Source of the DNA: Pseudideonella sakaiensis | GTDB lineage: Bacteria > Pseudomonadota > Gammaproteobacteria > Burkholderiales > Burkholderiaceae_C | DNA length: 64,000 nucleotides | Assembly: GCF_001293525.1 (NCBI RefSeq) | Contig: NZ_BBYR01000059.1 | Span: 1 to 64,000 of the forward strand | Direction: 5' to 3' | Program-made: the position numbers and the translations under genes | Notes under the pieces: model-generated | What the model was told of the DNA's origin: nothing | The model's input: only the letters and a program-made list of their open reading frames with translations | The model's database searches: none | In this document: piece by piece, positions 42,546-59,335 of the stretch | Layout: each line of letters opens with the position of its first letter | Numbering within the stretch: position 1 is the first letter of the stretch

Positions 42546-45500
42546 ATGCCTTCGTCCAAGTCTGCATACGACCCGTCGCCCGGAGCACCGAGCCCCGTCG
42601 TCAAAGAAGAGCACATCGAGTACGGCTTCATCGGCAAACTCCAGAGCCTCAAGTACGAGTACCGCCCCGACATCCGGGACCGCGCCGCGCTGGAACGCAA
42701 CTTCCGCGAGAAGTTCGAAGCCCTGAACCGGGTCCACCTGTCCGACGGCGAGTTCACCCGCCTGCTGGACGACCTCGTCACGCCCGACGTCTTCACCGCG
42801 TCCCGGAAGCTGCGTGAGCGCGAAACGTTCACCCGCGACGACGGCACGCCGCTGAACTACACCCTGGTCAACCTCAAGGACTGGTGCAAGAACAGCTTCG
42901 AGGTCGTCAACCAGCTGCGCATCAACACCGACTACAGCCACCACCGCTACGACGTTCTCATCCTCATCAACGGTGTGCCCTGCGTGCAGATCGAGCTCAA
43001 GACGCTGGGCATCAGCCCGCGCCGCGCCATGGAGCAGATCGTTGACTACAAGAACGACCCCGGCAACGGCTACAGCAAGACCCTGCTGTGCTTCCTGCAG
43101 CTGTTCATCGTCAGCAACCGCACCCACACCTGGTACTTCGCCAACAACAACGCGCGGCACTTCGCCTTCAACGCCGACGAGCGCTTCCTGCCCATTTACC
43201 AGTTTGCCGACGAGGCCAACAAGAAGATCACCCACCTCGACCATTTCGCCGAGACCTTCTTGCCCAAGTGCACGTTGGGCCAGGCCATCAGCCGCTACAT
43301 GGTGCTGGTGGCCAGCGAGCAAAAGCTGCTGATGATGCGGCCCTACCAGGTGTATGCGGTCAAAGCCATCGTGGAGTGCATCCACCAGAACAGCGGCAAC
43401 GGCTACATCTGGCACACCACCGGCAGCGGCAAGACGCTCACATCCTTCAAGGCGTCGACACTGTTGAAGGACAACCCCGACATCGAGAAGTGCCTCTTTG
43501 TGGTCGACCGCAAGGACCTGGACCGCCAGACCCGCGAAGAATTCAACCGCTTCCAGGAAGGCTGCGTAGAGGAGAACACCAATACCGGCGCGCTGGTGCG
43601 CCGCCTGCTGTCAGACGATTACGCCGATAAGGTCATCGTCACCACCATCCAGAAGCTGGGCCTGGCGCTGGACGAAAACAGCAAGCGCAACAAACAACGC
43701 AAGAAAAAACGACCTCAAAACCTACAAGGAACAGCTCGAACCGCTGAGCGACAAACGCATCGTCTTCATCTTCGACGAATGCCACCGCTCGCAGTTTGGC
43801 GACAACCACGAGGCCATCAAGACCTTCTTCCCCAAGGCCCAGCTCTTCGGGTTCACCGGCACGCCCATCTTCGAGAAGAACGCCACCGCCAAACAGTTCG
43901 AAGGCGAGGAAGGCCAGTTCAAGACCACCGAAGACCTGTTCCAGAAACAGCTGCACGCCTACACCATTACCCACGCGATTGAAGACGCCAACGTGCTGCG
44001 CTTCCACGTGGACTACTACAAGCCCGAAGGCAAGAACCCGCCCAAGCCCGGCGAAGCCCTGGCCAAGAAAGCCGTGGTCGAAGCCATCCTGGCCAAGCAC
44101 GACACCGCCACCGCCGGCCGCCGCTTCAACGCCGTGCTGGCCACCGCCAGCATCAACGACGCCATCGAATACCACGGCCTGTTCGATGAACTGCAAAAAG
44201 CAAAGCAGGCGGCCGACCCCGACTTCCAGCCGCTCAACATCGCCTGCGTGTTCTCACCCCCGGCCGAAGGCAACCCCGACGTGAAGCAACTGCAGCAAGA
44301 CCTGCAGCAGGAAAGAGCCGACAACGAGGAAGACCCCGAAGGCAAGAAGGCCGCGCTCAAAGCCATCCTGGCCGACTACAACGCCCGCTACGGCACCAAC
44401 CACCAGATCGGCGAGTTCGACCTGTATTACCAGGACGTGCAAAAGCGCATCAAAGACCAGCAGTGGCCCAACGCCGACTTCCCCGCCGCCAAGAAGATCG
44501 ACATCACCATCGTGGTGGACATGCTGCTCACCGGCTTTGACAGCAAGTACCTGAACACGCTGTACGTCGACAAGAACCTCAAGTACCACGGGCTCATTCA
44601 GGCCTTCTCGCGCACCAACCGCGTGCTCAACGGCAGCAAGCCCTACGGCAACATCCTCGACTTCCGCCAACAGCAAGCCAACGTGGACGAAGCCATCGCG
44701 CTGTTCTCGGGCGAAAACGCCACCGAGGAAGAACGCAAGATCTGGCTGGTGGACAAAGCCCCCGTGGTCATTGCGAAGCTCGACGCCGCCGTGCAGAAGC
44801 TGGCCGATTTCATGCAGACCCAGGGCCTGCCCTGCGCGGCCGAGGCCGTGCCCCAGCTCAAGGGGGACGACGCCCGCGCCGCCTTCATCAAGGCCTTCAA
44901 GGAAGTGCAGCGCCTCAAGACCCAGCTCGACCAATACACCGACTTGACCACCGACAACGCCGCCGCCATCGAAGCCATCCTGCCGCGCGAAGACCTGCAG
45001 GCCTTCCGTGGCGTGTACCTCGACACCGCCCAGCGCCTCAAGGCCCAGCAGGGCAAGACCCTGCCCGACACTGATGACAAGACCGGCGCCGACGAAGTGG
45101 ACCAGCTCGACTTTGAGTTCGTGCTGTTCGCCAGCGCCGTCATCGACTACGACTACATCATGGGCCTGATGTCTCGCTTCACCCAGCAGGGCACGGGCGG
45201 CAGCAAGCTCAAGATGAGCCGCGAGCAGCTCATCGGCATCATCGCGGCCGACGCCAAGTTCATGAACGAGCGCGACGACATCGCCGCCTACATCAACACC
45301 CTGAAGGCCGGCGAAGGCCTCAGCGAAACCGCCATCCGCGAGGGCTACCTCCGGTTCAAGAAGGAACGCGACAGCGCCGAGCTGGCCGCCATCGCCACGC
45401 GGCACGGCCTGGCCACCCCCGCCCTGCAAGCCTTTGTAGACCAGACGCTGCAACGCCTGATCTTGGACGGCGAGCGCTTAAGTGCACTCATGGAACCGCT

Positions 45501-45621
45501 TCAACTCGGCTGGAAGGCGCGAGCGCAAGCCGAGACCGCGCTGATGGCTCAGCTGATGCCCTTGCTGAACAAACGCGCCCAGGGCCGCGAGATTTCAGGA
45601 CTCAGCGCCTATGAGCAGTAA
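42546..45621 (+). pseudogene. hsdR: hsdR, type I restriction endonuclease subunit, frameshifted
   Basis: Nuclease domain: Asp136, Glu150 and Lys152 in YDVLILINGVPCVQIELKT, then helicase Walker A TTGSGKT (291-297) and VDRKDLDRQTREEF. The frame breaks at an A6 tract (43704-43709), where five A would keep frame; skipping one base restores KIVFIFDECHRSQFG-like motif II, GFTGTPIF and VDMLLTGFDSKYLN, then ALFSRTNRVL-type motif VI to the stop at 45621. The intact protein would be about 1,025 residues, normal for HsdR. As read, a 478-residue product lacks the helicase. The upstream frame starts at ATG 42546. Whether the extra A is real, phase-variable or an error cannot be told. Confidence 0.88.
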
Positions 45622-46765
45622 GAAGGCGCCCACACCCGTGAACAAGCCTTCGGCGCCATCCGCCACACCCGGCGACTTTGATGCGCTGGTGTCCGCCATC
45701 GTCCGCATCCATGGCCAATCGCAGGCCCTGGCGGCCAAGGCCGTCAACACCAGCCTGACCGTGCGCAACTGGCTGATCGGCCACCGCATCGTGGCGTTCG
45801 AGCAGCAGGGCAAAGACCGCGCGGCCTATGGCGAAAGGCTCTTGCCCGCCTTGGCCCAGCGCCTGGCGGCCGCCGGGCTCAAGCGGGTGGACGCCCGCGA
45901 GCTGCGCCGCTTTCGGCTGTTCTACAGCGTGTACCCGCAGATTCGGGAGGCGCTGTCTCCCGAATGGCTGGCGGGCCCTGGGGCTGCGGCATCGCCAGCG
46001 GCGCTGGCTGCACAGTCAGATCCCAAACGGGAGTCGGCGTCTCCCGTTTTGATCCACCACCTCTCCTTCTCCCACCTGGCCGAGCTGTGTGACCTGCCGG
46101 ACGACACCCAGCGCCGCTTCTACGAGGTGGAGTGCCTGCGCGGCAACTGGTCGGTACGCGAGCTGCGCCGCCAGATCGACAGCCTGTACTACCAGCGCAG
46201 CGGCCTGTCCAAAGACAAGGCCCAGCTCTCCGCCCTGGCCCACGCGGCGGCCGACACGCTGCAGCCCGCCCACGTCATCCGCGACCCCTATGTCTTTGAG
46301 TTTCTCGGCCTGCGCTCGCGCGACGTGATGGCCGAGTCCGACCTGGAAGACGCCCTGCTCGACCGCCTGCAAGACTTTCTGCTGGAGCTGGGCCACGGCT
46401 TCTGCTTCGAGGCCCGGCAAAAGCGCATCCTCATCGGCGATGAACACTTCTTCATCGACCTCGTCTTCTACCACCGCATCCTCAAGTGCCACGTGCTGGT
46501 CGAGCTCAAGACCGACGCCTTCCGCCACGAACACCTGGGCCAGCTCAACACTTACGTGGCCTATTACAAGAAACACCAGATGACCCCGGGCGACCAGCCG
46601 CCCATCGGCATCTTGCTGTGCACCCGCAAGAACGACGCGCTGGTCGAGTTCGCCCTGGGCGACCTGAACAACCAGGTCTTCGTCTCCCGCTACGCCGTGG
46701 AGCTGCCCCGCAAGGAAGAGATGGAACGCTTCATCACCCAGATCAGCCAGGAGGCGGGGGCATGA
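45611..46765 (+). CDS. YhcG/DUF1016-family PD-(D/E)xK nuclease
   Basis: 384 residues. The N-terminal DUF1016_N region (VRIHGQSQALAAKAVNTSLTVRNWLIGHRIV, GERLLPALAQRL, RFRLFYSVYPQI, HLSFSHLAELCDLPDDTQRRFYEVECL) and C-terminal nuclease core: Asp283 in FFIDLVFYHRIL, Glu298 and Lys300 in VLVELKTDAF, GQLNTYVAYYKKHQM. It belongs to the widespread group in defence islands, often inside restriction systems. The start lies 11 bases inside hsdR and the stop overlaps hsdS by four, so it is an integral operon member. Confidence 0.92.
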   Translation: MSSKKAPTPVNKPSAPSATPGDFDALVSAIVRIHGQSQALAAKAVNTSLTVRNWLIGHRIVAFEQQGKDRAAYGERLLPALAQRLAAAGLKRVDARELRRFRLFYSVYPQIREALSPEWLAGPGAAASPAALAAQSDPKRESASPVLIHHLSFSHLAELCDLPDDTQRRFYEVECLRGNWSVRELRRQIDSLYYQRSGLSKDKAQLSALAHAAADTLQPAHVIRDPYVFEFLGLRSRDVMAESDLEDALLDRLQDFLLELGHGFCFEARQKRILIGDEHFFIDLVFYHRILKCHVLVELKTDAFRHEHLGQLNTYVAYYKKHQMTPGDQPPIGILLCTRKNDALVEFALGDLNNQVFVSRYAVELPRKEEMERFITQISQEAGA

Positions 46766-48003
46766 AGACTGGCGCCACGAAGGACAAGGCCACGAAGGCA
46801 CTGGTGCCGAAGCTGAGGTTTCCTGAGTTTCGGGGGGCTGAAGGGTGGAACGAAAGGCCGCTTGCCGAATTGATGAGTGAAAGCCGCCTGCCTGGAAGCA
46901 AAGGCAACGTCGCGAAGAAGATCACTGTGAAGCTGTGGGGAAACGGCGTCTTTGAAAAGAACGACTCTATCCAAGGCAGCATCAACACCCAGTACTTCAG
47001 GCGGAAAGCTGGGCAGTTCATTTACAGCAAACTGGATTTCCTGAACCAGGCTTTCGGAATCATTCCACCGAGCTTGGATAACTTCGAGTCAACGGTTGAT
47101 TTGCCGTGCTTCGACTTCGCGGATGAGCTGAATCCCGTGTTCTTGTTGGAATACGTGAAGCGTCGGGACTTTTACGAAAGACTGGGTGAAACGGCCGACG
47201 GAAGTCGAAAGGCGCGACGCATACATGCTGAAACTTTCCTGTCGTTCCCAATCGCGCTGCCAATCCGGGCCGAACAACAGAAAATCGCCAACTGCCTAAG
47301 TTCCCTGGACGAACTGATCGCCGCGCAAGGGCGCAAGGTGGAGGCGCTCAAGACCCACAAAAAAGGGCTGATGCAGCAACTCTTCCCCCGCGAAGAAGAA
47401 AGCCAACCGCGCCTCCGCTTCCCCGAGTTTCAGGATGCGGGGAACTGGAAAAAGATGACCTTAGGCACTGCTGCGAATTTCTATAACGGGCGGGCGTACA
47501 AACAGGAAGAGCTTCTCGACGCCGGAAAATATAAAGTACTGCGCGTTGGCAATTTCTTTACCAACAACAATTGGTATTACTCCAATCTTGAGCTGGATGA
47601 AACCAAATATTGCGAAGATGGAGACCTGCTTTATGCATGGTCTGCATCATTCGGCCCACGCGTTTGGAGCGGCGAGAAAACCATTTATCACTACCACATT
47701 TGGAAAGTTGTCGAGCAGTCGGGCATCGATAAAAAGTTCCTCTTTATCGTCCTTGAGCATGAAACTGAGCGAATGAAAGCGAAGACCACAAATGGACTTG
47801 GCATCATGCACATCACAAAGGGCGCCATTGAGAGCTGGGAAAGCCTTTTCCCGGACTTGGCAGAGCAGAGAAAGATTGCTGACCGGCTAATGAATTTGGA
47901 AGGTGCGGCAAAAGCCGAGGCGCAAAAGCTAAAACTTCTGACCGTACATAAAGAAGCGCTGATGCAGCAACTCTTTCCGTCTATTGATGAAATCAAGCTA
48001 TGA
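46762..48003 (+). CDS. hsdS: hsdS, type I specificity subunit
   Basis: 413 residues with the two-fold S layout: start repeat KLRFPEF (about 17-23), first target-recognition domain, coiled coil EQQKIANCLSSLDELIAAQGRKVEALKTHKKGLMQQLFP, second repeat RLRFPEF (about 218), second domain, coiled coil EQRKIADRL ... AEAQKLKLLTVHKEALMQQLFP. Each half reads one part of the bipartite target. The second half is clearly AT-rich compared with its neighbours, a sign of recent domain exchange. Overlaps both neighbours by four bases (ATGA). Confidence 0.94.
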   Translation: MKTGATKDKATKALVPKLRFPEFRGAEGWNERPLAELMSESRLPGSKGNVAKKITVKLWGNGVFEKNDSIQGSINTQYFRRKAGQFIYSKLDFLNQAFGIIPPSLDNFESTVDLPCFDFADELNPVFLLEYVKRRDFYERLGETADGSRKARRIHAETFLSFPIALPIRAEQQKIANCLSSLDELIAAQGRKVEALKTHKKGLMQQLFPREEESQPRLRFPEFQDAGNWKKMTLGTAANFYNGRAYKQEELLDAGKYKVLRVGNFFTNNNWYYSNLELDETKYCEDGDLLYAWSASFGPRVWSGEKTIYHYHIWKVVEQSGIDKKFLFIVLEHETERMKAKTTNGLGIMHITKGAIESWESLFPDLAEQRKIADRLMNLEGAAKAEAQKLKLLTVHKEALMQQLFPSIDEIKL

Positions 48004-49220
48004 GCAAGGCATCCACCATCACCAGATTCAGGTCTTTGGAATCTTTGGCGCGAAAGTTTCGGAGAGACTTAAAGGGAGTCCAAAGGCGCAAGAAGACCTC
48101 TCAGCGCAAAGGAACTACACCGGTTGCCGGCAATGACTTCGTTTTGGTGTTTGCCCACAACGGTGTGGGTAAAACCCGGCTGTCAATGGAGTTTAAGAAT
48201 CTGGGCAAGAGCGAAGAGAAGCGAGATACTCTTTACTTCAATGCCTTTACGGAAGATCTCTTCGATTGGGACAATGATCTCGATGAAGACAAGGATCGCA
48301 GGATCAAATTCAAGGCCGAGTCTCATTTCTTTGATGGGCTCGATGGGATGGGTATTGAAGATCAGATTCGTCCGCTTCTTCATCAATATGCAGACTTTGA
48401 CTTCAGGATCAACTACGCCGCAGCGGAGATACGCTTTTATCGAGACGTGACGATTTCCGGTGTCCGTAGGCGACTAGAGGACATCAAGATTTCGCGAGGT
48501 GAAGAGAATATTTTTATCTGGTGTTTCTTCTTGGCTATCCTACAGTTGGCAATCGAAGCAGAGAAGGGGCAACCGTACGATTGGGTGAAGTATGTATATA
48601 TCGATGATCCCATTTCCTCCCTGGACGAACAAAACACTATTGCTGTTGCCGCTGGCCTCGGTAGCTTACTGAAACGCGAAGACAATAATCTAAAGGTTGT
48701 CGTATCTACGCACCACGGTCTATTTTTTAACGTAATGTTCAATGAGCTCACGGGGAAACGAACCCCCGAAGGCAAAGACAATATTAGGAAGAAGGCGTAC
48801 ATCCTTCATCGGTTGAATGAGGCGCAGACATACACGCTTGAAGATACGGGCGAATCGCCATTTCTGCATCACGTCGCAGCCTTAGAAGAGCTACGAGCTG
48901 TTGCAAAGTCCGGAAAAATATCGCAGTACCATTTCAATTCGCTGCGAAGTATCCTGGAGAAGACAGCGACATTTTTTGGCCGCCAACACATATCTACCTG
49001 CTTTGAAGGTCTGCCTAAGAAGTCGCTGTATGCGCGCTTTCTGAATGTGCGGAGTCACGCGAAATATTCTGTATTTGAATCAGAATCTATAACCGCAACC
49101 GACAAGAAGATGTTTCGAGAAATTCTCGACACTTTTCTCGAGCGCTATGCATTCCGATTGGCATCTACAGGTGCATCGACTGCGCGTGTGTCCCACCCGG
49201 CAACTACGGGGACTCCATGA
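48000..49220 (+). CDS. prrC: PrrC-family anticodon nuclease
   Basis: 406 residues, like E. coli PrrC (396). It cuts tRNA-Lys in the anticodon loop when phage blocks the restriction enzyme. N-terminal ABC-type ATPase: Walker A FAHNGVGKTRLS (52-62), the PrrC hallmark YFNAFTEDLFDWDNDL (79-94), signature-like ISRGEENIFIW (164-174), Walker B YVYIDDPISSLDEQN (198-212), switch STHHGLFFNVMFNEL. C-terminal nuclease: Arg316 and Glu320 in SLRSILEKTATFFG and His353 in VRSHAKYS, matching Arg320, Glu324 and His356 of E. coli PrrC. Roughly half G+C by eye, far below neighbours, so imported. Lies between hsdS and hsdM. Confidence 0.95.
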   Translation: MSKASTITRFRSLESLARKFRRDLKGVQRRKKTSQRKGTTPVAGNDFVLVFAHNGVGKTRLSMEFKNLGKSEEKRDTLYFNAFTEDLFDWDNDLDEDKDRRIKFKAESHFFDGLDGMGIEDQIRPLLHQYADFDFRINYAAAEIRFYRDVTISGVRRRLEDIKISRGEENIFIWCFFLAILQLAIEAEKGQPYDWVKYVYIDDPISSLDEQNTIAVAAGLGSLLKREDNNLKVVVSTHHGLFFNVMFNELTGKRTPEGKDNIRKKAYILHRLNEAQTYTLEDTGESPFLHHVAALEELRAVAKSGKISQYHFNSLRSILEKTATFFGRQHISTCFEGLPKKSLYARFLNVRSHAKYSVFESESITATDKKMFREILDTFLERYAFRLASTGASTARVSHPATTGTP

Positions 49221-50845
49221 CCGAAGAAAAACAGAAGCAACTGGGCAAGACGCTGTGGGCGATTGCCGACCAGCTGCGCGGCGCGATGGACGCGGACGAC
49301 TTCCGCGACTACATGCTGTCGTTCCTGTTTCTGCGCTACCTGTCGGACAACTACGAAGCCGCCGCCAAGAAGGAGCTGGGCAGCGACTACCCGGACATCA
49401 GCGAAGACTTGCTAAAGCAGACCGGGGCCAGCACGCCGCTGCAGGTTTGGTATGAAGAGAACCGCGGCGACGTGCCCGCGTTCGAAAAGCAGATGCGCCG
49501 CAAGGTGCACTACGTCATCCAGCCAGAGCACCTGTGGAGCGCCGTGGCCAACATGGCGCGCACGCAAGACGCGTCTCTGCTGAACACGCTGCAAGAGGGC
49601 TTCAAGTACATCGAGACCGAGTCGTTCGAGAGCACCTTCCAGGGCCTGTTCTCTGAGATCGACCTGGCCTCGAACAAGCTGGGCAAGGGCTATACCGAGC
49701 GCAATGCCAAGCTGTGCGCCATCATCCAGAAGATAGCCGAGGGGCTGGCGTCGTTCTCCACCGACGTGGACACGCTGGGCGATGCGTATGAATACCTGAT
49801 CGGCCAGTTCGCGGCGGGCTCGGGCAAGAAGGCGGGCGAGTTCTACACGCCGCAGCAGGTGTCAGACGTGCTGTCGGCCATCGTCACGCTGGACAGCCAG
49901 GAGCCCAAGACGGGGGTGAGGCCACGGCTGGACAGCGTGATGGACTTTGCCTGCGGCTCGGGCTCGCTGTTGATGAACGTGCGCCGCCGCATGCAAAAGG
50001 CGGGGGGCACGATCGGCAAGATCTACGGTCAGGAGAAGAACGTCACCACCTACAACCTGGCGCGCATGAACATGCTGCTGCACGGGGTGAAGGACACCGA
50101 GTTTGAAATCTTCCACGGCGATACGCTGGCCAACGAGTGGGACAAGCTGCGCGAGCTGAACCCTGCCAAGCAACCGAAGTTCGATGCCATCGTGGCCAAC
50201 CCGCCCTTCAGCCTGCGTTGGGAGCCTGACGAGGCGATGGCGGACGACGTGCGCTTCAAGAACCACGGCCTGGCGCCCAAGTCAGCGGCGGACTTTGCCT
50301 TTCTGCTGCACGGCTTTCACTTCCTGAAGGACGAAGGGGTGATGGCCATCATCCTGCCGCACGGGGTGCTGTTCCGGGGCGGGGCAGAGGAACGCATCCG
50401 CACCAAGCTGCTGAAGGACGGGCACATCGACACCGTGATCGGTCTGCCATCCAACCTGTTCTATTCCACGGGCATCCCGGTCTGCATCCTGGTGCTGAAG
50501 AAGTGCAAGAAGCCGGACGACGTGCTGTTCATCAACGCGGCGGAACACTTCGTCAAAGGCAAGCGCCAGAACCAGCTGACCGACGAGCACATCGCCAAGA
50601 TCATCAAGACCTACCAGTTCCGTGAGCAAGAAGCCCGCTACTCGCGCAGGGTGGAGATGCCCGAAGTCGAGAAGAACGATTTCAACCTGAACATCTCGCG
50701 CTACATCAGCACGGCGGTGGGTGAGACGGAAATCGATCTGGATGACACGCACCAAGCGCTGCTGGATATCGAGAAGGCGATCGCGGCGGCGAAGGACACC
50801 CACAACGGCTTCTTGAAAGAGCTGGGGTTGAAGCCGTTGCCGTAG
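49217..50845 (+). CDS. hsdM: hsdM, type I DNA methyltransferase subunit
   Basis: 542 residues. N-terminal helical domain (QLGKTLWAIADQLRGAMDADDFRDYMLSFLFLRYLSD), SAM site DFACGSGSLLMNVRRRM (motif I), target-adenine motif IV NPPFSLRWEP, and GEFYTPQQVSDVLSAIVTLD ahead of it. It methylates the target read by HsdS and forms M2S. Start overlaps prrC by four bases. Being last in the operon is unusual, as hsdM normally leads. It restores native-like G+C after prrC. Confidence 0.96.
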   Translation: MTEEKQKQLGKTLWAIADQLRGAMDADDFRDYMLSFLFLRYLSDNYEAAAKKELGSDYPDISEDLLKQTGASTPLQVWYEENRGDVPAFEKQMRRKVHYVIQPEHLWSAVANMARTQDASLLNTLQEGFKYIETESFESTFQGLFSEIDLASNKLGKGYTERNAKLCAIIQKIAEGLASFSTDVDTLGDAYEYLIGQFAAGSGKKAGEFYTPQQVSDVLSAIVTLDSQEPKTGVRPRLDSVMDFACGSGSLLMNVRRRMQKAGGTIGKIYGQEKNVTTYNLARMNMLLHGVKDTEFEIFHGDTLANEWDKLRELNPAKQPKFDAIVANPPFSLRWEPDEAMADDVRFKNHGLAPKSAADFAFLLHGFHFLKDEGVMAIILPHGVLFRGGAEERIRTKLLKDGHIDTVIGLPSNLFYSTGIPVCILVLKKCKKPDDVLFINAAEHFVKGKRQNQLTDEHIAKIIKTYQFREQEARYSRRVEMPEVEKNDFNLNISRYISTAVGETEIDLDDTHQALLDIEKAIAAAKDTHNGFLKELGLKPLP

Positions 50846-50856
50846 GCCTCGTGCGG

Positions 50857-54612
<3,756 letters not shown>

Positions 54613-54830
54613 GTGAATCTCTTCCTTCGTAGCCTTGGTAGAGAGGGCCGCCCGCTGTGGAGAACGCTATTTTCTTCTTTTCGATCAGGGCCTTAGGCCC
54701 GGGGCAAGCCTGTGGGCGGAGGGCCTGATCGCGCGGGACTCGCCGACAACAACCCGGCGGCCGGCGCGCACGCGGTGGACAACTGCCCGGTTGTTCCAGA
54801 CTTGTCCCCAGGCTTGCGCAGCGGCCGTGC
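54613..54830. other. dnaA-dnaN gap with weak DnaA boxes
   Basis: Holds one reverse box TGTGGAGAA (54656-54664), a short T-rich stretch just after it (54669-54681), an 8-bp inverted repeat CGATCAGG / CCTGATCG (54682 and 54724), and a GTGGACAA site near 54777. The T-rich piece could be an unwinding element, but perfect TTATCCACA boxes are elsewhere. It may also contain the dnaN promoter. Confidence 0.5.
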
Positions 54831-56297
54831 TCATCCCTTCAGCGTCTGTTCCAGCACGTGCAGCTGCTGGTTCAGCTCGGTGTTCTTCTGGCGCTCGCCG
54901 CCGATCTTGCGCACCGCGTGCAGCACCGTGGTGTGGTCGCGCCCGCCGAACAGCTCGCCGATCTCGGGCAGGCTCTTCTGCGTCATCTCCTTGGCCAGGT
55001 ACATCGCGATCTGGCGCGGCCGGGCGATCGAGGCCGGGCGCTTCTTGCTGTACATGTCGGCCACCTTGATCTTGTAGAAGTCGGCCACCGTCTTCTGGAT
55101 GTTCTCGACGCCGATCTGGCGGTTCTGGATCGACAGCAGGTCCTTCAGCGCCTCGCGCGCGAGCGCAATGTTGATGTCCTTGTGGCTGAAGCGCGCATAG
55201 GCCAGCACCTTGCGCAGCGCGCCTTCCAGCTCGCGCACGTTGGCGCGCACGTTCTTCGCGACGAAGAAGGCCACGTCCTCGGGCATCACCGTGGCCTCGG
55301 CCTCGGCCTTGCGCATCAGGATGGCCACGCGCATCTCCAGCTCGGGCGGCTCGATGGCCACCGTCAGGCCGGCGTCGAAGCGGCTGGTCAGCCGTTCGTC
55401 GATGTCGACCAGGCCCTTGGGGTAGGTGTCGCTGGTCATGATGATGTGCGCGCGCTTGGCCAGCAGCGCCTCGAAGGCGTTGAAGAACTCCTCCTGGGTG
55501 CGCTCCTTGCCGGCGAAGAACTGCACGTCGTCGATCAGCAGCAGGTCGAGCGAGTGGTACTTGGCCTTCAGCTCGTCGAAGGTCTTGCGCTGGTAGTTCT
55601 TGACGACGTCGCTGATGAACTGCTCGGCGTGCAGGTAGAGGATGCGGGCGTCCGGCCGGTCGGCCAGCAGCGCGTTGCCGACGGCGTGGATCAGGTGGGT
55701 CTTGCCGAGGCCGACGCCGCCGTAGATGAACAGCGGGTTGTACATCTGCCCCGGCGCGCCGGCCACGTGCAGCGCGGCGGTGCGCGCCATCTGGTTGGCG
55801 CGGCCGGGCACCAGGTTCTCGAAGGTCCACTGGGTGTTGAGCCGGTGCGTGGGCTCGGGCGGCCGCGCACGGGCGGCGCTGCCCGCGTCGCCTGCCCGCG
55901 GGGCCGCGGCGCCGGGCAGGCCGGCGCCCGCCACCGCGCCCGGCGGCAGCGGCACGCGGGTGGTGGCGTCGGTGGTGGCGACGAGGTGGCGGGTGGCGAG
56001 GCGGCGCGGGTCCGCGCCGGCGCCGGGCACGACGCCCACCTCCAGCCGCACCGCGCGGCCGGCCAGTTCGCTCAGCACGTGCTCGATCCGCGCACCGTAC
56101 TGGCTGCGGATCCAGTCGAGCTTGAAGCGGTTCGGGACCTGCAGCGTGGCCACCAGCGTGGCGCCCGCCGCATCGTCCTTCCCTCCCACCTCCGTGATCT
56201 CTGCCGGCGCGAGCGGGCGGATCCACGTGTTGTATTGAATTTCGGGCAGTTCGGCGGCGAGTCGCTCGCAGCCGCGCTGCCACAGATCAGCGCTCAT
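54831..56297 (-). CDS. dnaA: Replication initiator DnaA
   Basis: 488 residues. Domain I ([25 protein letters not shown]), a Pro/Ala/Gly-rich domain II (about 95-165), AAA+ domain III with [19 protein letters not shown] and [22 protein letters not shown], and domain IV with the box-reading [15 protein letters not shown]. It unwinds the origin at DnaA boxes. The ATG at 56297 begins at the conserved MSADLWQRG; longer frames run through the origin boxes. Divergent from rpmH. Confidence 0.97.
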
Positions 56298-56300
56298 CGT

Positions 56301-56370
56301 TGTGGAGAAGTTCTCGGGCAGCGGCCGGGATTCTACGCCGGCAGGGGCCGGTCGTGGGCGGTTATCCACA
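56301..56370. promoter_or_regulatory. DnaA boxes upstream of dnaA, part of oriC candidate
   Basis: A perfect consensus box TTATCCACA at 56362-56370 and a variant TTCTCCACA (reverse, 56301-56309) lie in the 208-bp dnaA-rpmH gap. They probably autoregulate dnaA and may belong to the origin. The gap also holds the rpmH promoter. Fewer boxes than a full oriC, which may extend into rnpA. Confidence 0.7.
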
Positions 56371-56422
56371 GCCTGGGTGACGGGTCGCGCGCCGATGTCC
56401 CGGCGGCCGCGGGGCCAAGTCT

Positions 56423-56451
56423 TTGACTGGATTGGCTCTTTTTGGTCTAAT
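56423..56451 (+). promoter_or_regulatory. Sigma-70 promoter of rpmH
   Basis: TTGACT and TCTAAT are spaced by 17 bases, followed by a 54-base leader to the rpmH ATG. One of the best promoter matches in this GC-rich window, as expected for a ribosomal protein gene. It probably drives rpmH, rnpA, yidD and yidC together. Confidence 0.75.
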
Positions 56452-56505
56452 GCTCGGTTTCCCCGATGTGTGGCCGGCAAGCTGGCCCTTCGCCTGGACA
56501 GCATC

Positions 56506-56640
56506 ATGAAACGCACCTACCAAGCCTCCAAGACCCGCCGCGCCCGCACCCACGGCTTCCTCGTGCGCATGAAGACGCGCGGCGGCCGTGCCGTGATCGC
56601 CGCACGCCGCGCCAAGGGCCGCAAGCGCCTGGCCGTCTGA
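56506..56640 (+). CDS. rpmH: 50S ribosomal protein L34
   Basis: 44 residues, [20 protein letters not shown] then [24 protein letters not shown], standard for L34 except for the betaproteobacterial [17 protein letters not shown] spelling. Arg/Lys-rich and binds 23S rRNA. First gene of the rpmH-rnpA-yidD-yidC-mnmE row, divergent from dnaA. Confidence 0.98.
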
Positions 56641-56711
56641 GCGGGCCCGGGCCCGTCGCGGCAGGCTCCGTCCGCCCCGCCACCGCCCCCGACAGCGCCG
56701 TCGACACCACC

Positions 56712-57251
56712 GTGTGGGGCCGCATCGTCCGGCCGGGTGATTTCCAGCGCGTCCTCGGCAAACCGCCGGCGGCGCGCAGTGCGCATTTCGCGGTCCACTT
56801 CCTGGGCCAGGGGCCGTTGCGCCCCGCGCGGCCGGCGCCCAAGCCAGCGTCCGAAAAGTTATCCACACCGGATGAACAAACTTGTTCACAGGGTGTGGAT
56901 GACCGGGCCGATGCCGCATCCGTCGCCGTGTCAGTGCCCACTCCGGCGGCAGCGCCCGTGGCTGCGCCGCCGCCCACCGGCGGCTGGCTCGGCATGGTGG
57001 TGCCGAAGCGGCACGCGAAGCGCAGCGTCACGCGCAACCTCGTGAAGCGGCAGATCCGCGCGGTGTTCGACGACGTCGGCCTGGCCGGTGAGCGCGCCGC
57101 GGGCCTGCGGCCCGGCCTCTGGGTCGTGCGCCTGCGCGCGCCGATCGACCGCAGCCGCTTCCCGAGTGCCGCGTCCGACGCGCTGCGCCGCGCGATGCGC
57201 GACGAACTCGCGGGCATGCTGCGCCAGGCGGCGCGCCGCCGCGAGGCCTGA
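56712..57251 (+). CDS. rnpA: RNase P protein component with an extra segment
   Basis: 179 residues if begun at the GTG 71 bases after rpmH; about 50-60 more than usual. The fold is split: N-terminal GRIVRPGDFQRVLG and SAHFAVHF, then about residues 36-95 of Pro/Ala-rich insert, then GWLGMVVPKRHAKRSVTRNLVKRQIRAVF (the RNR signature), and the ending WVVRLRAPIDRSRF. It helps RNase P RNA cut tRNA leaders. The start lacks a ribosome site; translation may be coupled to rpmH. The insert DNA carries DnaA boxes (listed separately). Confidence 0.9.
   Translation: MWGRIVRPGDFQRVLGKPPAARSAHFAVHFLGQGPLRPARPAPKPASEKLSTPDEQTCSQGVDDRADAASVAVSVPTPAAAPVAAPPPTGGWLGMVVPKRHAKRSVTRNLVKRQIRAVFDDVGLAGERAAGLRPGLWVVRLRAPIDRSRFPSAASDALRRAMRDELAGMLRQAARRREA
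56858..56903. repeat. Symmetric inverted repeat with DnaA boxes inside rnpA
   Basis: Outer arms ATCCACACC (56861-56869) and GGTGTGGAT (56892-56900) and inner arms GAACAA (56874-56879) and TTGTTC (56882-56887) are perfectly symmetric about 56880/56881. The left outer arm with its flank is the consensus DnaA box TTATCCACA (56859-56867); the right is TCATCCACA reversed (56894-56902). It encodes part of the rnpA insert. Candidate part of the origin. Confidence 0.8.
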
Positions 57252-57254
57252 GCC

Positions 57255-57590
57255 ATGCCGCCGCGCCTGCACCGCATCGGGTCCGCGCTGTGGCGCCTGC
57301 CGCGCCGCGCGCTGGTGCTGCTGCTGCGCGGCTACCGGCTGCTGCTGAGCCCCTGGCTCGGCGCGAGCTGCCGCTTCCATCCCACCTGCTCCGCGTACGC
57401 GATCGAGGCGCTCGAGCGCCACGGCGCGCTGGCGGGCTCCCTGCTGACCACCGGCCGGCTGCTGCGCTGCCACCCCTGGTGCACCCCCGGCGACGACCCC
57501 GTGCCCGCGCGGCCCTGGCGTCCGTTCACCGGGCTGCTGCCGGGATCGTCCGCGCCGACCCCGTCGAACCTGAAGAAGCCTTCGCCATGA
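57255..57590 (+). CDS. yidD: Membrane protein insertion efficiency factor YidD
   Basis: 111 residues. Amphipathic N-terminus then RALVLLLRGYRLLLSPWLGASCRFHPTCSAYAIEAL with the conserved Cys residues, and GRLLRCHPWCTPGDDPVP. Helps YidC insert proteins. The stop overlaps the yidC start by four bases; 3 bp after rnpA. Confidence 0.94.
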   Translation: MPPRLHRIGSALWRLPRRALVLLLRGYRLLLSPWLGASCRFHPTCSAYAIEALERHGALAGSLLTTGRLLRCHPWCTPGDDPVPARPWRPFTGLLPGSSAPTPSNLKKPSP

Positions 57591-59335
57591 CCGACATCCG
57601 TCGCACCCTGCTGTGGGTGGTGTTTTCGATGTCCCTGCTGCTGATCTGGGACGCGTGGAACAAGCACAACGGCCAGCCCGGGCTGTTCGGCCCGTCGACC
57701 TCGGCGCCGCGCGCCGCGGCGCCGGCCTCGCAGCCGGGCGGCACGCCCCCGGCCCCGGCCGTGTCCGCGCTGCCCACGCCGGCCGCGGTGCCCGGCACGC
57801 CCGCCGTTGCGGGCACGCCGCCGGCCGCCGCGCCCGCCGCGGTCGCGTCGGAGCAGGTCACGCTGACCACCGACGTGGTCAAGGCCACCTTCGACAGCCG
57901 CGGCGGCAGCCTGGTGCGGCTGGAGCTGCTGAAGCAGGTGGACCAGAACGACCGCACGCGCAACGTCGTGCTGTTCGACCAGTCCGCGCAGCGCCTGTAC
58001 ACCGCGCAGACCGGCCTGATCGCGGCCCCTGGCGGCGCGGCGCTGCCGAATCACCAGACGGCGATGACCGTGCTGCCGGGCGAGCGCAGCCTGCGCGACG
58101 GCAGCGACACGCTGGAGCTCAAGTTCGAGTCGCCCGCGGTGGGCGGCGCCAAGCTGGTGAAGACCTTCCGCTTCCAGCGCGGCAGCTACGTGGTCGCGGT
58201 GCACCACGACATCGTCAACACCGGCAGCGAGCCGATCCAGCCCCAGCTCTACCTGCAGCTGGTGCGCGACGGCAACCCGCCGGCCGGCGAGAGCAGCTTC
58301 TACTTCACCTTCACCGGCCCGGCGCTCTACACCGACGCGAACAAGTTCCACAAGGTGGACTTCAAGAGCATCGAGAAGCGCACCGCCGGCGAGGCCCCGG
58401 GCCACGACACCAAGGCCGACAACGGCTGGGTGGCGATGGTGCAGCACTACTTCGCGTCGGCCTGGCTGCTCGGCGCCAACAACGAAGACCGCCGCCCGCG
58501 CGAGTTCTTCACCCGCAAGGTCGACACCAACCAGTACGCGATCGGCATGATCGTGCCGCTGGGCACGCTGGCGCCTGGCGCCACGCAGGCGGTGGACGCG
58601 CGCCTGTTCGCCGGCCCGCAGGAGGAGAACAAGCTCAGCGCGCTGGCGCCCGGGCTCGAGCTGGTGAAGGACTATGGCTGGTTCACGATCCTGGCCAAGC
58701 CCATCTTCTGGCTGCTGACGCAACTGCACGCGCTGATCGGCAACTGGGGCTGGTCCATCGTCGCGCTGGTGGTGCTGCTGAAGATCGCCTTCTACTGGCT
58801 CAACGCCAGTGCCTACCGCTCGATGGCGAAGATGAAGGCCATCAACCCGCGCATCATGGAGATGCGCGAGCGCCTGAAGGACAAGCCGCAGCAGATGCAG
58901 CAGGAGATGATGCGCATCTACCGCGAGGAGAAGGTGAACCCGATCGGTGGCTGCCTGCCGATCGTGGCGCAGATGCCCTTCTTCATCGCGCTGTACTGGG
59001 TGCTGCTGTCCAGCGTGGAGATGCGCAATGCCGGCTGGCTCTACATTGCCGACCTGGCCCAGCCCGACAACCTGTTCGGCACCATCCCGTGGATCAACCT
59101 GCCGCTCGGCCCGCTGCCGCTGCTGATGACGGCGTCCAGCCTGCTGCAGACCTGGCTCAACCCGACCCCGCCGGACCCGGTGCAGGCCCGCATGATGTGG
59201 ATCATGCCGCTGGTGTTCTCGGTGATGTTCTTCTACTTCCCGGCCGGCCTGGTCGTGTACTGGCTGACGAACAACATCCTGTCGATCGCCCAGCAGTACC
59301 TGATCAACAAGCAGCTGGGCGTGATCGGCAAGTGA
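57587..59335 (+). CDS. yidC: Membrane protein insertase YidC
   Basis: 582 residues. N-terminal membrane helix RRTLLWVVFSMSLLLIWDAW, a Pro/Ala-rich linker (about 30-85), the large periplasmic P1 domain of gram-negative YidC (about 90-350), then the conserved insertase core with helices WGWSIVALVVLLKIAFYWLN, the NPIGGCLPIVAQMPFFIALYWVL groove motif and SVMFFYFPAGLVVYWLTNNILSI. Inserts proteins alone or with Sec. Ends VIGK. Confidence 0.97.
   Translation: MTDIRRTLLWVVFSMSLLLIWDAWNKHNGQPGLFGPSTSAPRAAAPASQPGGTPPAPAVSALPTPAAVPGTPAVAGTPPAAAPAAVASEQVTLTTDVVKATFDSRGGSLVRLELLKQVDQNDRTRNVVLFDQSAQRLYTAQTGLIAAPGGAALPNHQTAMTVLPGERSLRDGSDTLELKFESPAVGGAKLVKTFRFQRGSYVVAVHHDIVNTGSEPIQPQLYLQLVRDGNPPAGESSFYFTFTGPALYTDANKFHKVDFKSIEKRTAGEAPGHDTKADNGWVAMVQHYFASAWLLGANNEDRRPREFFTRKVDTNQYAIGMIVPLGTLAPGATQAVDARLFAGPQEENKLSALAPGLELVKDYGWFTILAKPIFWLLTQLHALIGNWGWSIVALVVLLKIAFYWLNASAYRSMAKMKAINPRIMEMRERLKDKPQQMQQEMMRIYREEKVNPIGGCLPIVAQMPFFIALYWVLLSSVEMRNAGWLYIADLAQPDNLFGTIPWINLPLGPLPLLMTASSLLQTWLNPTPPDPVQARMMWIMPLVFSVMFFYFPAGLVVYWLTNNILSIAQQYLINKQLGVIGK

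What the first reader, a model, noticed from the sequence alone, without database searches (positions are those of the whole stretch)
42546..50845. PrrC anticodon-nuclease operon with novel gene order R - DUF1016 - S - prrC - M
Five genes overlap end to start (ATGA or longer). prrC has the complete PrrC hallmark set and all three nuclease residues. In the E. coli prr locus the order is M-S-C-R; here R leads, a PD-(D/E)xK DUF1016 nuclease is inserted before S, and M is last. This combines three defence activities (type I restriction, a second nuclease, tRNA-cutting guard) under one promoter. The combination and order look unusual to me and may be undescribed.
Basis: partly seen in the sequence, partly recalled or inferred. 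Interest (0 to 1): 0.85.

Follow-up and report, generated by a model that had tools for sequence, protein, structure and literature searches.

The report
Restriction operon carrying a tRNA-cutting guard
This is a bacterial DNA-restriction operon that also carries a tRNA-cutting suicide enzyme (PrrC) and an extra predicted nuclease gene; the gene order called new turns out to be a common one for this family, and only the extra gene is a little out of the ordinary.

Summary
The genes are real: hsdR, a DUF1016/YhcG gene, hsdS, prrC and hsdM lie on one strand and overlap by 11, 4, 4 and 4 bases. PrrC is a true family member by sequence: the PADLOC PrrC model scores 425 bits and the Arg-Glu-His triad aligns with E. 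coli R320/E324/H356. The claimed novelty, the order R-S-prrC-M, fails. Of 15 strong PrrC loci in 397 other genomes of the window's phylum, 8 are R-S-C-M (one cut by its contig) and 7 are M-S-C-R; the two orders follow two deep PrrC clades. R-S-PrrC-M loci are annotated on IncC and IncF plasmids, and one from Klebsiella was tested in print in 2024: it blocked T1 and T7 and targeted tRNA-Lys. Between the core genes these loci carry varied extra genes. DUF1016 occurs inside 8 of 79 fetched relatives, in four subfamilies and two slots, so it was gained repeatedly. RhuM in such loci is published; no held paper names both PrrC and DUF1016. Most likely this is a known guard system with an exchangeable cargo gene, its restriction subunit broken in this copy or mis-sequenced.

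The parts
42546..45621 (+). hsdR, type I restriction subunit (EcoR124_C type), frameshifted near 43,700-43,710: frame 1 runs 42546-43982, the HsdR sequence continues in another frame from 43711 to 45621
   Evidence: ORFs and translations; Pfam HSDR_N/SWI2_SNF2 on the first part, T1R_D3-like/EcoR124_C on the second; 66 relatives cross the spot in one frame
45611..46765 (+). DUF1016/YhcG gene, predicted PD-(D/E)xK nuclease (E259, D283, E298-x-K300), 384 aa
   Evidence: Pfam DUF1016_N and YhcG_C, PADLOC PDC-S02; E259, D283 and K300 kept in 9 of 9 aligned rows, position 298 E in 7 and D in 2
46762..48003 (+). hsdS, specificity subunit, 413 aa
   Evidence: Pfam Methylase_S; PADLOC Specificity_I over residues 7-411
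48000..49220 (+). prrC, ABC-ATPase plus anticodon-nuclease domain, 406 aa; Walker A 55-60, signature 165-170, Walker B 200-209, H-loop 236-240, triad R316/E320/H353
   Evidence: PADLOC PrrC 4.8e-128; alignment of 98 PrrC rows including a 396-aa E. coli PrrC; motif positions; predicted fold matches Rad50/SMC heads over about residues 8-294
49217..50845 (+). hsdM, N6-adenine methyltransferase subunit, 542 aa, NPPF at 328
   Evidence: Pfam HsdM_N and N6_Mtase; NCBIfam hsdM above cut-off

Best explanation
A guarded type I restriction-modification locus of the R-S-PrrC-M clade. HsdM and HsdS methylate host sites and, with HsdR, cut unmodified foreign DNA. PrrC is held latent by the Hsd complex and released when a phage disables that complex, then cleaves a tRNA anticodon loop (tRNA-Lys is the first guess) and stops translation. 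The DUF1016 gene is an exchangeable cargo gene, probably a DNA nuclease, that entered the R|S slot and is coupled to its neighbours by gene overlap; I think it is a second, independent nuclease arm and not part of PrrC control. In this copy hsdR carries a frameshift, so either restriction is lost here or the sequence has an error. Shown here: gene content, overlaps, motifs, clade, gene-order frequency, repeated cargo gain, the frameshift. Known for relatives and only inferred here: latency, release, tRNA cleavage. Inferred without direct support: DNA cleavage by DUF1016 and its role against phage.
For: PADLOC PrrC model 425 bits, next family 53; triad and ATPase motifs aligned column by column with a 396-aa E. 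coli PrrC in an M-S-C-R locus; strong purifying selection on prrC (pN/pS 0.09-0.20 against six relatives, lowest of the operon in each, though its synonymous sites are near or at saturation); R-S-C-M in 8 of 15 strong loci of the phylum sample; PrrC tree of 97 rows: 8 of 8 M-S-C-R rows on one side of a branch with full SH-aLRT support and 89 of 89 R-S-C-M rows on the other (quick tree). A cloned HsdR-HsdS-PrrC-HsdM system stops T1 and T7, arrests growth and targets tRNA-Lys (PMC11555353). DUF1016 inside 8 of 79 fetched relatives, in four subfamilies (69-85% identity inside, 28-41% between) and two slots.
Against: hsdR is broken in the deposited sequence, so the restriction half, and the partner that anti-PrrC serum brings down in E. 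coli (PMC3014915, passages), may be missing. The tRNA-contact peptide of E. coli PrrC (residues 284-294) is not conserved: E. coli GDSNKSF against window GES--PF, with Asp287 aligned to Glu285, so the tRNA target is open. No sigma-70-like promoter was found. DUF1016 was in 0 of the 15 strong loci of the phylum sample, so it is an occasional partner.
Confidence: 0.8

Rival explanations
1. Decaying locus: hsdR is truly inactivated, restriction is gone, and what remains is a methyltransferase with a silenced or drifting PrrC and DUF1016.
For: Frameshift private to this sequence. In all six comparisons with the window, pN/pS is higher after the break than before it (ratio 1.13-1.95, mean 1.36), against a mean of 1.08 (0.65-1.77) in the 15 pairs of relatives without the window: a hint of relaxed constraint, though the six share one branch and the ranges overlap. 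Two other relatives also have an interrupted hsdR match, L026 and L079.
Against: The other four genes of the operon are open, and prrC is the most constrained of them. Constraint after the break is still clear (0.20-0.40), so a break would be recent.
Confidence: 0.42
2. Sequencing or assembly artefact: hsdR is intact in the organism and the operon is fully working.
For: One extra base at an A-run in a 227-contig draft assembly; 66 relatives cross the spot in one frame.
Against: Read data are not available here. gyrB, yidC and the other four genes of the operon are open, so indel errors are not frequent in this stretch. The pN/pS hint leans the other way.
Confidence: 0.43
3. DUF1016 is a functional part of the PrrC control circuit (a sensor, a second guarded effector or a processing enzyme), not mere cargo.
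For: Four DUF1016 subfamilies sit in R|S or C|M slots of PrrC loci, and in 7 of 8 the gene overlaps at least one neighbour by match coordinates; RhuM and DOC genes in PrrC/RloC R-M loci were proposed as a third defence level (PMC3710099, section 10).
Against: Close PrrC relatives (83-90% identity) have none (L011) or a different DUF1016 at C|M (L005, L002), so PrrC works without this one. DUF1016 is also common away from PrrC: of 29 other loci from the window's order looked at, 2 lie beside prrC (in L152 only part of prrC matched) and 7 beside other hsdM/hsdS-like genes, with one more (L147) marginal.
Confidence: 0.15
4. The protein is RloC-like and senses DNA breaks, not R-M inhibition.
For: The ATPase head matches Rad50/SMC heads, best Z 12.3 with rmsd 3.3 over 199 residues.
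Against: 406 aa with no room for the zinc-hook/coiled-coil insert of RloC (PMC2610378, abstract and passages); linked to all three hsd genes; the PADLOC PrrC model scores 425 bits against 53 for the next family.
Confidence: 0.04

Closest known systems
PrrC170 system of Klebsiella quasipneumoniae (HsdR, HsdS, PrrC, HsdM; PMC11555353, 2024)
   Same: Same four genes, listed in the same order with the promoter stretch taken before HsdR; 35% identity to E. coli PrrC as printed, against 33% for the window protein with another E. coli PrrC.
   Different: No DUF1016 among its four genes; a working antiphage system. Its sequence was not held here, so placing it in the R-S-C-M clade is inference from gene order and percent identity.
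E. coli prr locus (EcoprrI + PrrC; prrABCD)
   Same: PrrC triad, ATPase motifs, size (396 against 406 aa), embedding in an hsd operon directly after hsdS (the E. coli record read is a plasmid, CP057689.1).
   Different: Order hsdM-hsdS-prrC-hsdR; other deep clade of PrrC; HsdM and HsdR of that clade 32-38% identical to the window's; different tRNA-contact peptide.
R-X-X-S-PrrC-M loci on IncC, IncA and IncF plasmids of E. coli and Klebsiella (LC744502.1, NZ_AP022145.1, CP052535.1)
   Same: Same R-[cargo]-S-C-M plan with tightly packed, overlapping genes; PrrC 48-51% identical.
   Different: The cargo is two other genes in place of DUF1016 (annotated TrlF-family AAA-like ATPase and RNA-binding-domain protein in NZ_AP022145.1; other names in the other two records).
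PrrC-like + R-M + RhuM loci (PMC3710099, 2013)
   Same: Three-part locus: R-M, HEPN ribonuclease, and a third gene in the same neighbourhood.
   Different: The third gene is RhuM (DOC for RloC-like proteins), not DUF1016.
Campylobacter jejuni rlo/mlo genes in hsd loci (Miller et al. 2005, as cited in PMC5183652)
   Same: Extra genes between hsdR and hsdS and between hsdS and hsdM, i.e. comparable slots.
   Different: The passage read does not name PrrC.

Membership tests
PrrC anticodon nuclease | Catalytic triad Arg-x3-Glu ... His (E. coli R320, E324, H356) | tested here: met
   R316, E320, H353 in the same columns; kept in 98, 98 and 97 of 98 rows; the exception is L126, a broken gene
PrrC anticodon nuclease | N-terminal ABC ATPase motifs: Walker A, degenerate signature, Walker B, linchpin His | tested here: met
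   GVGKTR 55, SRGEEN 165, YIDDPISSLD 200, STHHG 236; key residues invariant in the 38 rows of A1; predicted head fold
PrrC anticodon nuclease | Linkage to a type Ic hsd locus | tested here: met
   hsdS before, hsdM after, hsdR upstream with EcoR124_C domain
PrrC anticodon nuclease | 15-residue 'PrrC box' in the N-domain | tested here: inconclusive
   A largely invariant block lies at residues 76-93, but the box's letters were not given in the text read, so I cannot say that it is the box
PrrC anticodon nuclease | tRNA-contact peptide of E. coli PrrC (284-294, Asp287) | tested here: not met
   Peptide not conserved, Asp287 aligned to Glu285; PMC3014915 section 33 says this stretch varies among PrrC proteins, so it does not define the family
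PrrC anticodon nuclease | tRNA cleavage, latency with Hsd and release on its inhibition | not testable with these tools
Type IC restriction-modification system | HsdM, HsdS and HsdR of EcoR124 type | tested here: met
   Pfam and PADLOC hits
Type IC restriction-modification system | Uninterrupted HsdR | tested here: not met
   Frameshift near 43,700-43,710 in the deposited sequence
YhcG/DUF1016 PD-(D/E)xK family | DUF1016_N plus YhcG_C with motif E-D-E-x-K | tested here: met
   Pfam both domains; E259, D283, E298-L-K300; motif as stated in PMC1189080 (passages); which Glu is the first motif residue is my assignment
YhcG/DUF1016 PD-(D/E)xK family | DNA cleavage | not testable with these tools
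   Only predicted in PMC1189080 too (passages)
RloC anticodon nuclease | Zinc-hook/coiled-coil insert | tested here: not met
   406 aa in all, motifs spaced as in PrrC

The most novel reading that the evidence does not exclude
PrrC R-M loci are a chassis with fixed cargo slots (R|S, S|C, C|M) into which different effectors are loaded again and again, and the Hsd complex holds the cargo in check as it does PrrC. DUF1016, present as four separate subfamilies in two slots, would then be a second guarded effector: a DNA nuclease released together with the tRNA nuclease when a phage disables restriction.
Probability: 0.2. Interest if true: 0.6.

Novelty: new variant of a known kind. Interest (0 to 1): 0.3.

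Why it matters
It corrects the impression that PrrC loci are ordered M-S-C-R: 8 of 15 strong loci sampled in the window's phylum are R-S-C-M, and the two orders follow two deep PrrC clades, each with its own HsdM and HsdR. It also shows that these operons carry swappable extra genes in set slots, of which DUF1016 is a recurrent one that I did not find described next to PrrC. If any cargo is controlled by the Hsd complex, that would widen the guard idea beyond PrrC; if not, this is an ordinary defence operon.

Tried and rejected
Novel gene order: rejected by the phylum sample, the seeded set, plasmid annotations and a 2024 paper.

RloC identity: rejected on size and model score. Programmed frameshift in hsdR: considered, rejected because the 66 relatives with a match over the spot cross it in one frame.

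A different tRNA target because the contact peptide differs: kept as open, lowered because a Klebsiella PrrC of the same gene order targets tRNA-Lys (PMC11555353).

Sequence searches of the PDB with PrrC and with its profile gave no real relative (best E 0.09 with the single protein, nothing at E 1 with the profile); DUF1016 gave none. The PrrC model (mean pLDDT 79.5, pTM 0.71) matched by its ATPase head; the nuclease part (about 295-383) is barely tested by that search, so the HEPN assignment is taken from PMC3710099. Foldseek TM-scores by query were 0.19-0.31 in the 50 rows shown. Rfam and tRNA scans showed nothing in the operon. The genus-level search was useless: only the window's own genome is held for the genus. 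The careful tree did not finish; the tree quoted is the quick one.

Counting choices. Taxon names: the genome tool names neither phylum nor order of the window; Pseudomonadota and Burkholderiales are my guess from the nearest PrrC relatives. One search kept the best 80 of 237 confirmed stretches (79 loci) and is seeded with the window's PrrC, so it says nothing on the share of M-S-C-R. 'Strong' in the phylum sample means E below 1e-100; G082 (1e-50, in pieces) and the weak matches in the other genomes (55 of 398 genomes in all at E 0.001) are not counted. Of 98 PrrC rows, 8 have a stop in the stretch taken: 6 near the C-terminal end (L003, L008, L036, L059, L077, L115), two further in (L047, L051); the stop signs were dropped for the tree. 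L126 was left out of the tree. In the cargo clustering I dropped minus-strand ORFs, ORFs under 110 aa and the M|C gaps (the 394-430-aa ORF there is taken to be hsdS, not tested). Only representatives of clusters were scanned with Pfam; other members are named by blastp linkage. One RhuM of the 14 (L058) lies after hsdM, not between core genes. L032 (DUF1016 3.2 kb past hsdM) is not counted as an insertion. Of the 83 genomes with a DUF1016 match, context was looked at only for the 29 other loci fetched, with short flanks. In one search the window's hsdR third-position value is wrong because of the frameshift (one search has the right ones); the single exception for hsdS there is the window itself for that reason. 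Literature: of the three papers I read passages of one (PMC1913061); of the 48, passages of PMC11341870 and PMC1189080.

It showed slightly weaker constraint after the break in the window's pairs, so I moved the decay rival from 0.35 to 0.42 and the artefact rival from 0.5 to 0.43.
Full report
What is there. The window holds, on the + strand, hsdR (42546-45621), a DUF1016/YhcG gene (45611-46765), hsdS (46762-48003), prrC (48000-49220) and hsdM (49217-50845). Each gene overlaps the next, by 11, 4, 4 and 4 bases. Pfam and PADLOC recognise all five genes; NCBIfam names hsdM above its cut-off and matches the two hsdR parts below it, and gave no match for hsdS or prrC. The operon ends 111 bases before the 3' end of gyrB, which lies on the other strand; dnaN (label from recall) and yidC follow.

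hsdR is not one open gene. The first frame is HsdR up to about 43,700 and then runs as unrelated sequence to a stop at 43982; the HsdR sequence continues in another frame from 43711. A tblastn of the 120-residue stretch found 66 relatives (67 rows, one locus twice), all of which cross the spot in one frame; one of them, L026, has a stop elsewhere in the stretch. The nucleotide alignments show the window with one base more than its near relatives at an A-run. As deposited the protein ends before the DECH motif. Selection: pN/pS is 0.14-0.30 before the break and 0.20-0.40 after it in six comparisons with the window. The ratio after/before is 1.13-1.95 (mean 1.36) in those six and 0.65-1.77 (mean 1.08) in the 15 pairs of relatives without the window. 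That is a weak hint of real decay; a draft error in a 227-contig assembly remains as likely. Two other relatives also have an interrupted hsdR match (L026, L079); two further flags in that call, L050 and L065, look like two hsdR copies joined by my merging rule.

Is it PrrC? Yes by sequence. The PADLOC PrrC model scores 425 bits, the next family 53. An alignment of 98 PrrC proteins, one of them a 396-aa E. coli plasmid protein annotated 'anticodon nuclease' in an M-S-C-R locus, puts R316, E320 and H353 of the window in the columns of E. coli R320, E324 and H356. Walker A, signature, Walker B and H-loop are all there. The AlphaFold2 model (mean pLDDT 79.5) matches Rad50 and SMC heads over about residues 8-294 with Z up to 12.3. 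prrC has the lowest pN/pS of the operon in each of six comparisons (0.09-0.20), with the caution that its synonymous sites are near saturation. The 11-residue peptide that contacts tRNA in E. coli PrrC is not conserved: GDSNKSF there, GES--PF here, Asp287 against Glu285. The review PMC3014915 (sections 33 and 34) already says that this stretch varies and that substrates may vary.

Is the order new? No. The PADLOC PrrC model was run on 398 genomes drawn evenly from the window's phylum, the window's own among them; 55 had a match at E 0.001, most of them weak. Fifteen others than the window had a strong PrrC (E below 1e-100) and one a broken one (G082). Neighbourhoods of all sixteen were fetched. 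Of the fifteen, eight are R-S-C-M (one cut by its contig to S-C-M) and seven are M-[394-430-aa ORF]-C-R. In the 79 loci fetched with the window's own PrrC (the best 80 of 237 confirmed stretches, so a seeded set), none has hsdM before or hsdR after prrC. A quick IQ-TREE tree of 97 PrrC proteins puts all 8 M-S-C-R rows on one side of a branch with full SH-aLRT support and all 89 R-S-C-M rows on the other; HsdM and HsdR of the M-S-C-R loci share only 32-38% identity with the window's. Plasmid records of E. coli and Klebsiella show R-X-X-S-PrrC-M, the two X genes being annotated in NZ_AP022145.1 as TrlF-family AAA-like ATPase and RNA-binding-domain protein; 113 plasmid records in all carry a relative of the window's PrrC, 71 of them from Klebsiella. 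In PMC11555353 (section 9 and passages) a Klebsiella quasipneumoniae system of four genes, listed as HsdR, HsdS, PrrC and HsdM with 300 bases before HsdR, protects against T1 and T7; its PrrC arrests growth and targets tRNA-Lys. I did not have its sequence.

The cargo. Between the core genes there are slots. Measured gaps of 600 bases or more: R|S 17 of 75, S|C 9 of 75, C|M 11 of 85 (DUF1016 genes fall inside these gaps). Clusters of the gene products, named from Pfam scans of representatives: RhuM 14, BRO-N 8, AlbA_2 and/or HATPase_c_4 4, DEAD helicase 3, a large AAA protein 3, PIN 3 (two clusters), others single. RhuM is found in 6 of the 15 sample loci, DUF1016 in none of them. In the seeded set DUF1016 is inside 8 of 79 loci: at R|S in L003, L004, L014, L026, L075 and at C|M in L002, L005, L045. 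These eight and the window fall into four subfamilies: window+L004 (81%), L003/L014/L026/L075 (69-77%), L002+L005 (85%), L045; between subfamilies 28-41%. The window's nearest PrrC relative, L005 (90%), carries RhuM and a different DUF1016 at C|M and nothing at R|S; L011 (83%) carries none. So the cargo is exchanged faster than PrrC changes. E259, D283 and K300 of the window's DUF1016 are kept in all nine rows, and position 298 is E in seven and D in two.

What is in print. PrrC orthologues are said to be invariably linked to type Ic systems (PMC2610378, passages). R-M loci with PrrC-like and RhuM, or RloC-like and DOC, genes were described as multi-level defence in 2013 (PMC3710099, section 10). 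Extra genes between hsdR and hsdS and between hsdS and hsdM were named rlo and mlo in C. jejuni (PMC5183652, passages). YhcG was predicted to be a PD-(D/E)xK nuclease in 2005, with one case beside a type I cluster in Methanosarcina (PMC1189080, passages). No held paper contains both 'PrrC' and 'DUF1016'. Three contain 'DUF1016' and 'type I restriction', of which I read passages of one. The library lacks most subscription papers, and a paper that calls the gene YhcG or by another name beside PrrC could be missed.

How it most likely works. By homology: R-M first; PrrC bound and latent; release when a phage blocks the Hsd complex; tRNA cleavage and growth arrest. None of this was shown for this locus. 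DUF1016 most likely acts as a separate nuclease arm carried by the operon; a link to PrrC control is possible but not needed by the data. If hsdR is truly broken, restriction is off and PrrC control may be altered, since in E. coli anti-PrrC serum precipitates HsdR and activation needs cleavable restriction sites (PMC3014915, passages).

Verdict. A PrrC R-M operon in the ordinary order of its clade, with a recurrent cargo gene that I did not find described beside PrrC, and a frameshifted hsdR. Modest interest.

Noticed in passing
window 50957-59332: The operon sits beside gyrB, with dnaN (label from recall) and yidC next, which looks like a replication-origin neighbourhood; none of the 95 related loci has a gyrB or dnaN match (E 1e-20) in its fetched stretch.
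   Followed up: partly
window 46762-49220: hsdS and prrC have low third-position GC (0.63 and 0.53) inside an operon at 0.88-0.91 (hsdR, DUF1016, hsdM). Across 75 R-S-C-M loci prrC is lower than both hsdR and hsdM in 69; hsdS in 74, the exception being the window by a frame error. An exchanged S-C cassette, or selection for weak expression.
   Followed up: partly
L002, L003, L004, L005, L007, L011: Synonymous divergence from the window is larger for prrC (1.5 to saturated) than for hsdR or hsdM (0.5-0.9), though in four of the six (L002, L003, L004, L005) prrC is at least as well conserved as protein. Codon bias may explain part of it.
   Followed up: no
LC744502.1 (L128), NZ_AP022145.1 (L159), CP052535.1 (L161): Plasmids of the IncC, IncA and IncF groups carry R-X-X-S-PrrC-M with the same two cargo genes by length; 71 of 113 plasmid records with a relative of this PrrC are Klebsiella.
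   Followed up: partly
L126 (G082): A same-family relative of the window's genome has prrC in pieces, with about 1.3 kb between the prrC piece and hsdR, which follows it.
   Followed up: no
L047, L051: The prrC match of these two loci has a stop well before its end (residue 299 of 383 and 73 of 455 of the stretch taken): a broken gene, an error, or a wrong start in my extraction.
   Followed up: no
G000:C12:12590-12832: The window's own genome has a second, weak PrrC-model match inside a 901-codon open frame, possibly RloC-like.
   Followed up: no
L039, L051, L053: A long ORF of 1,079-1,142 codons (DEAD-box helicase by Pfam in L039, the others by blastp linkage) lies between hsdS and prrC in three loci.
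   Followed up: no
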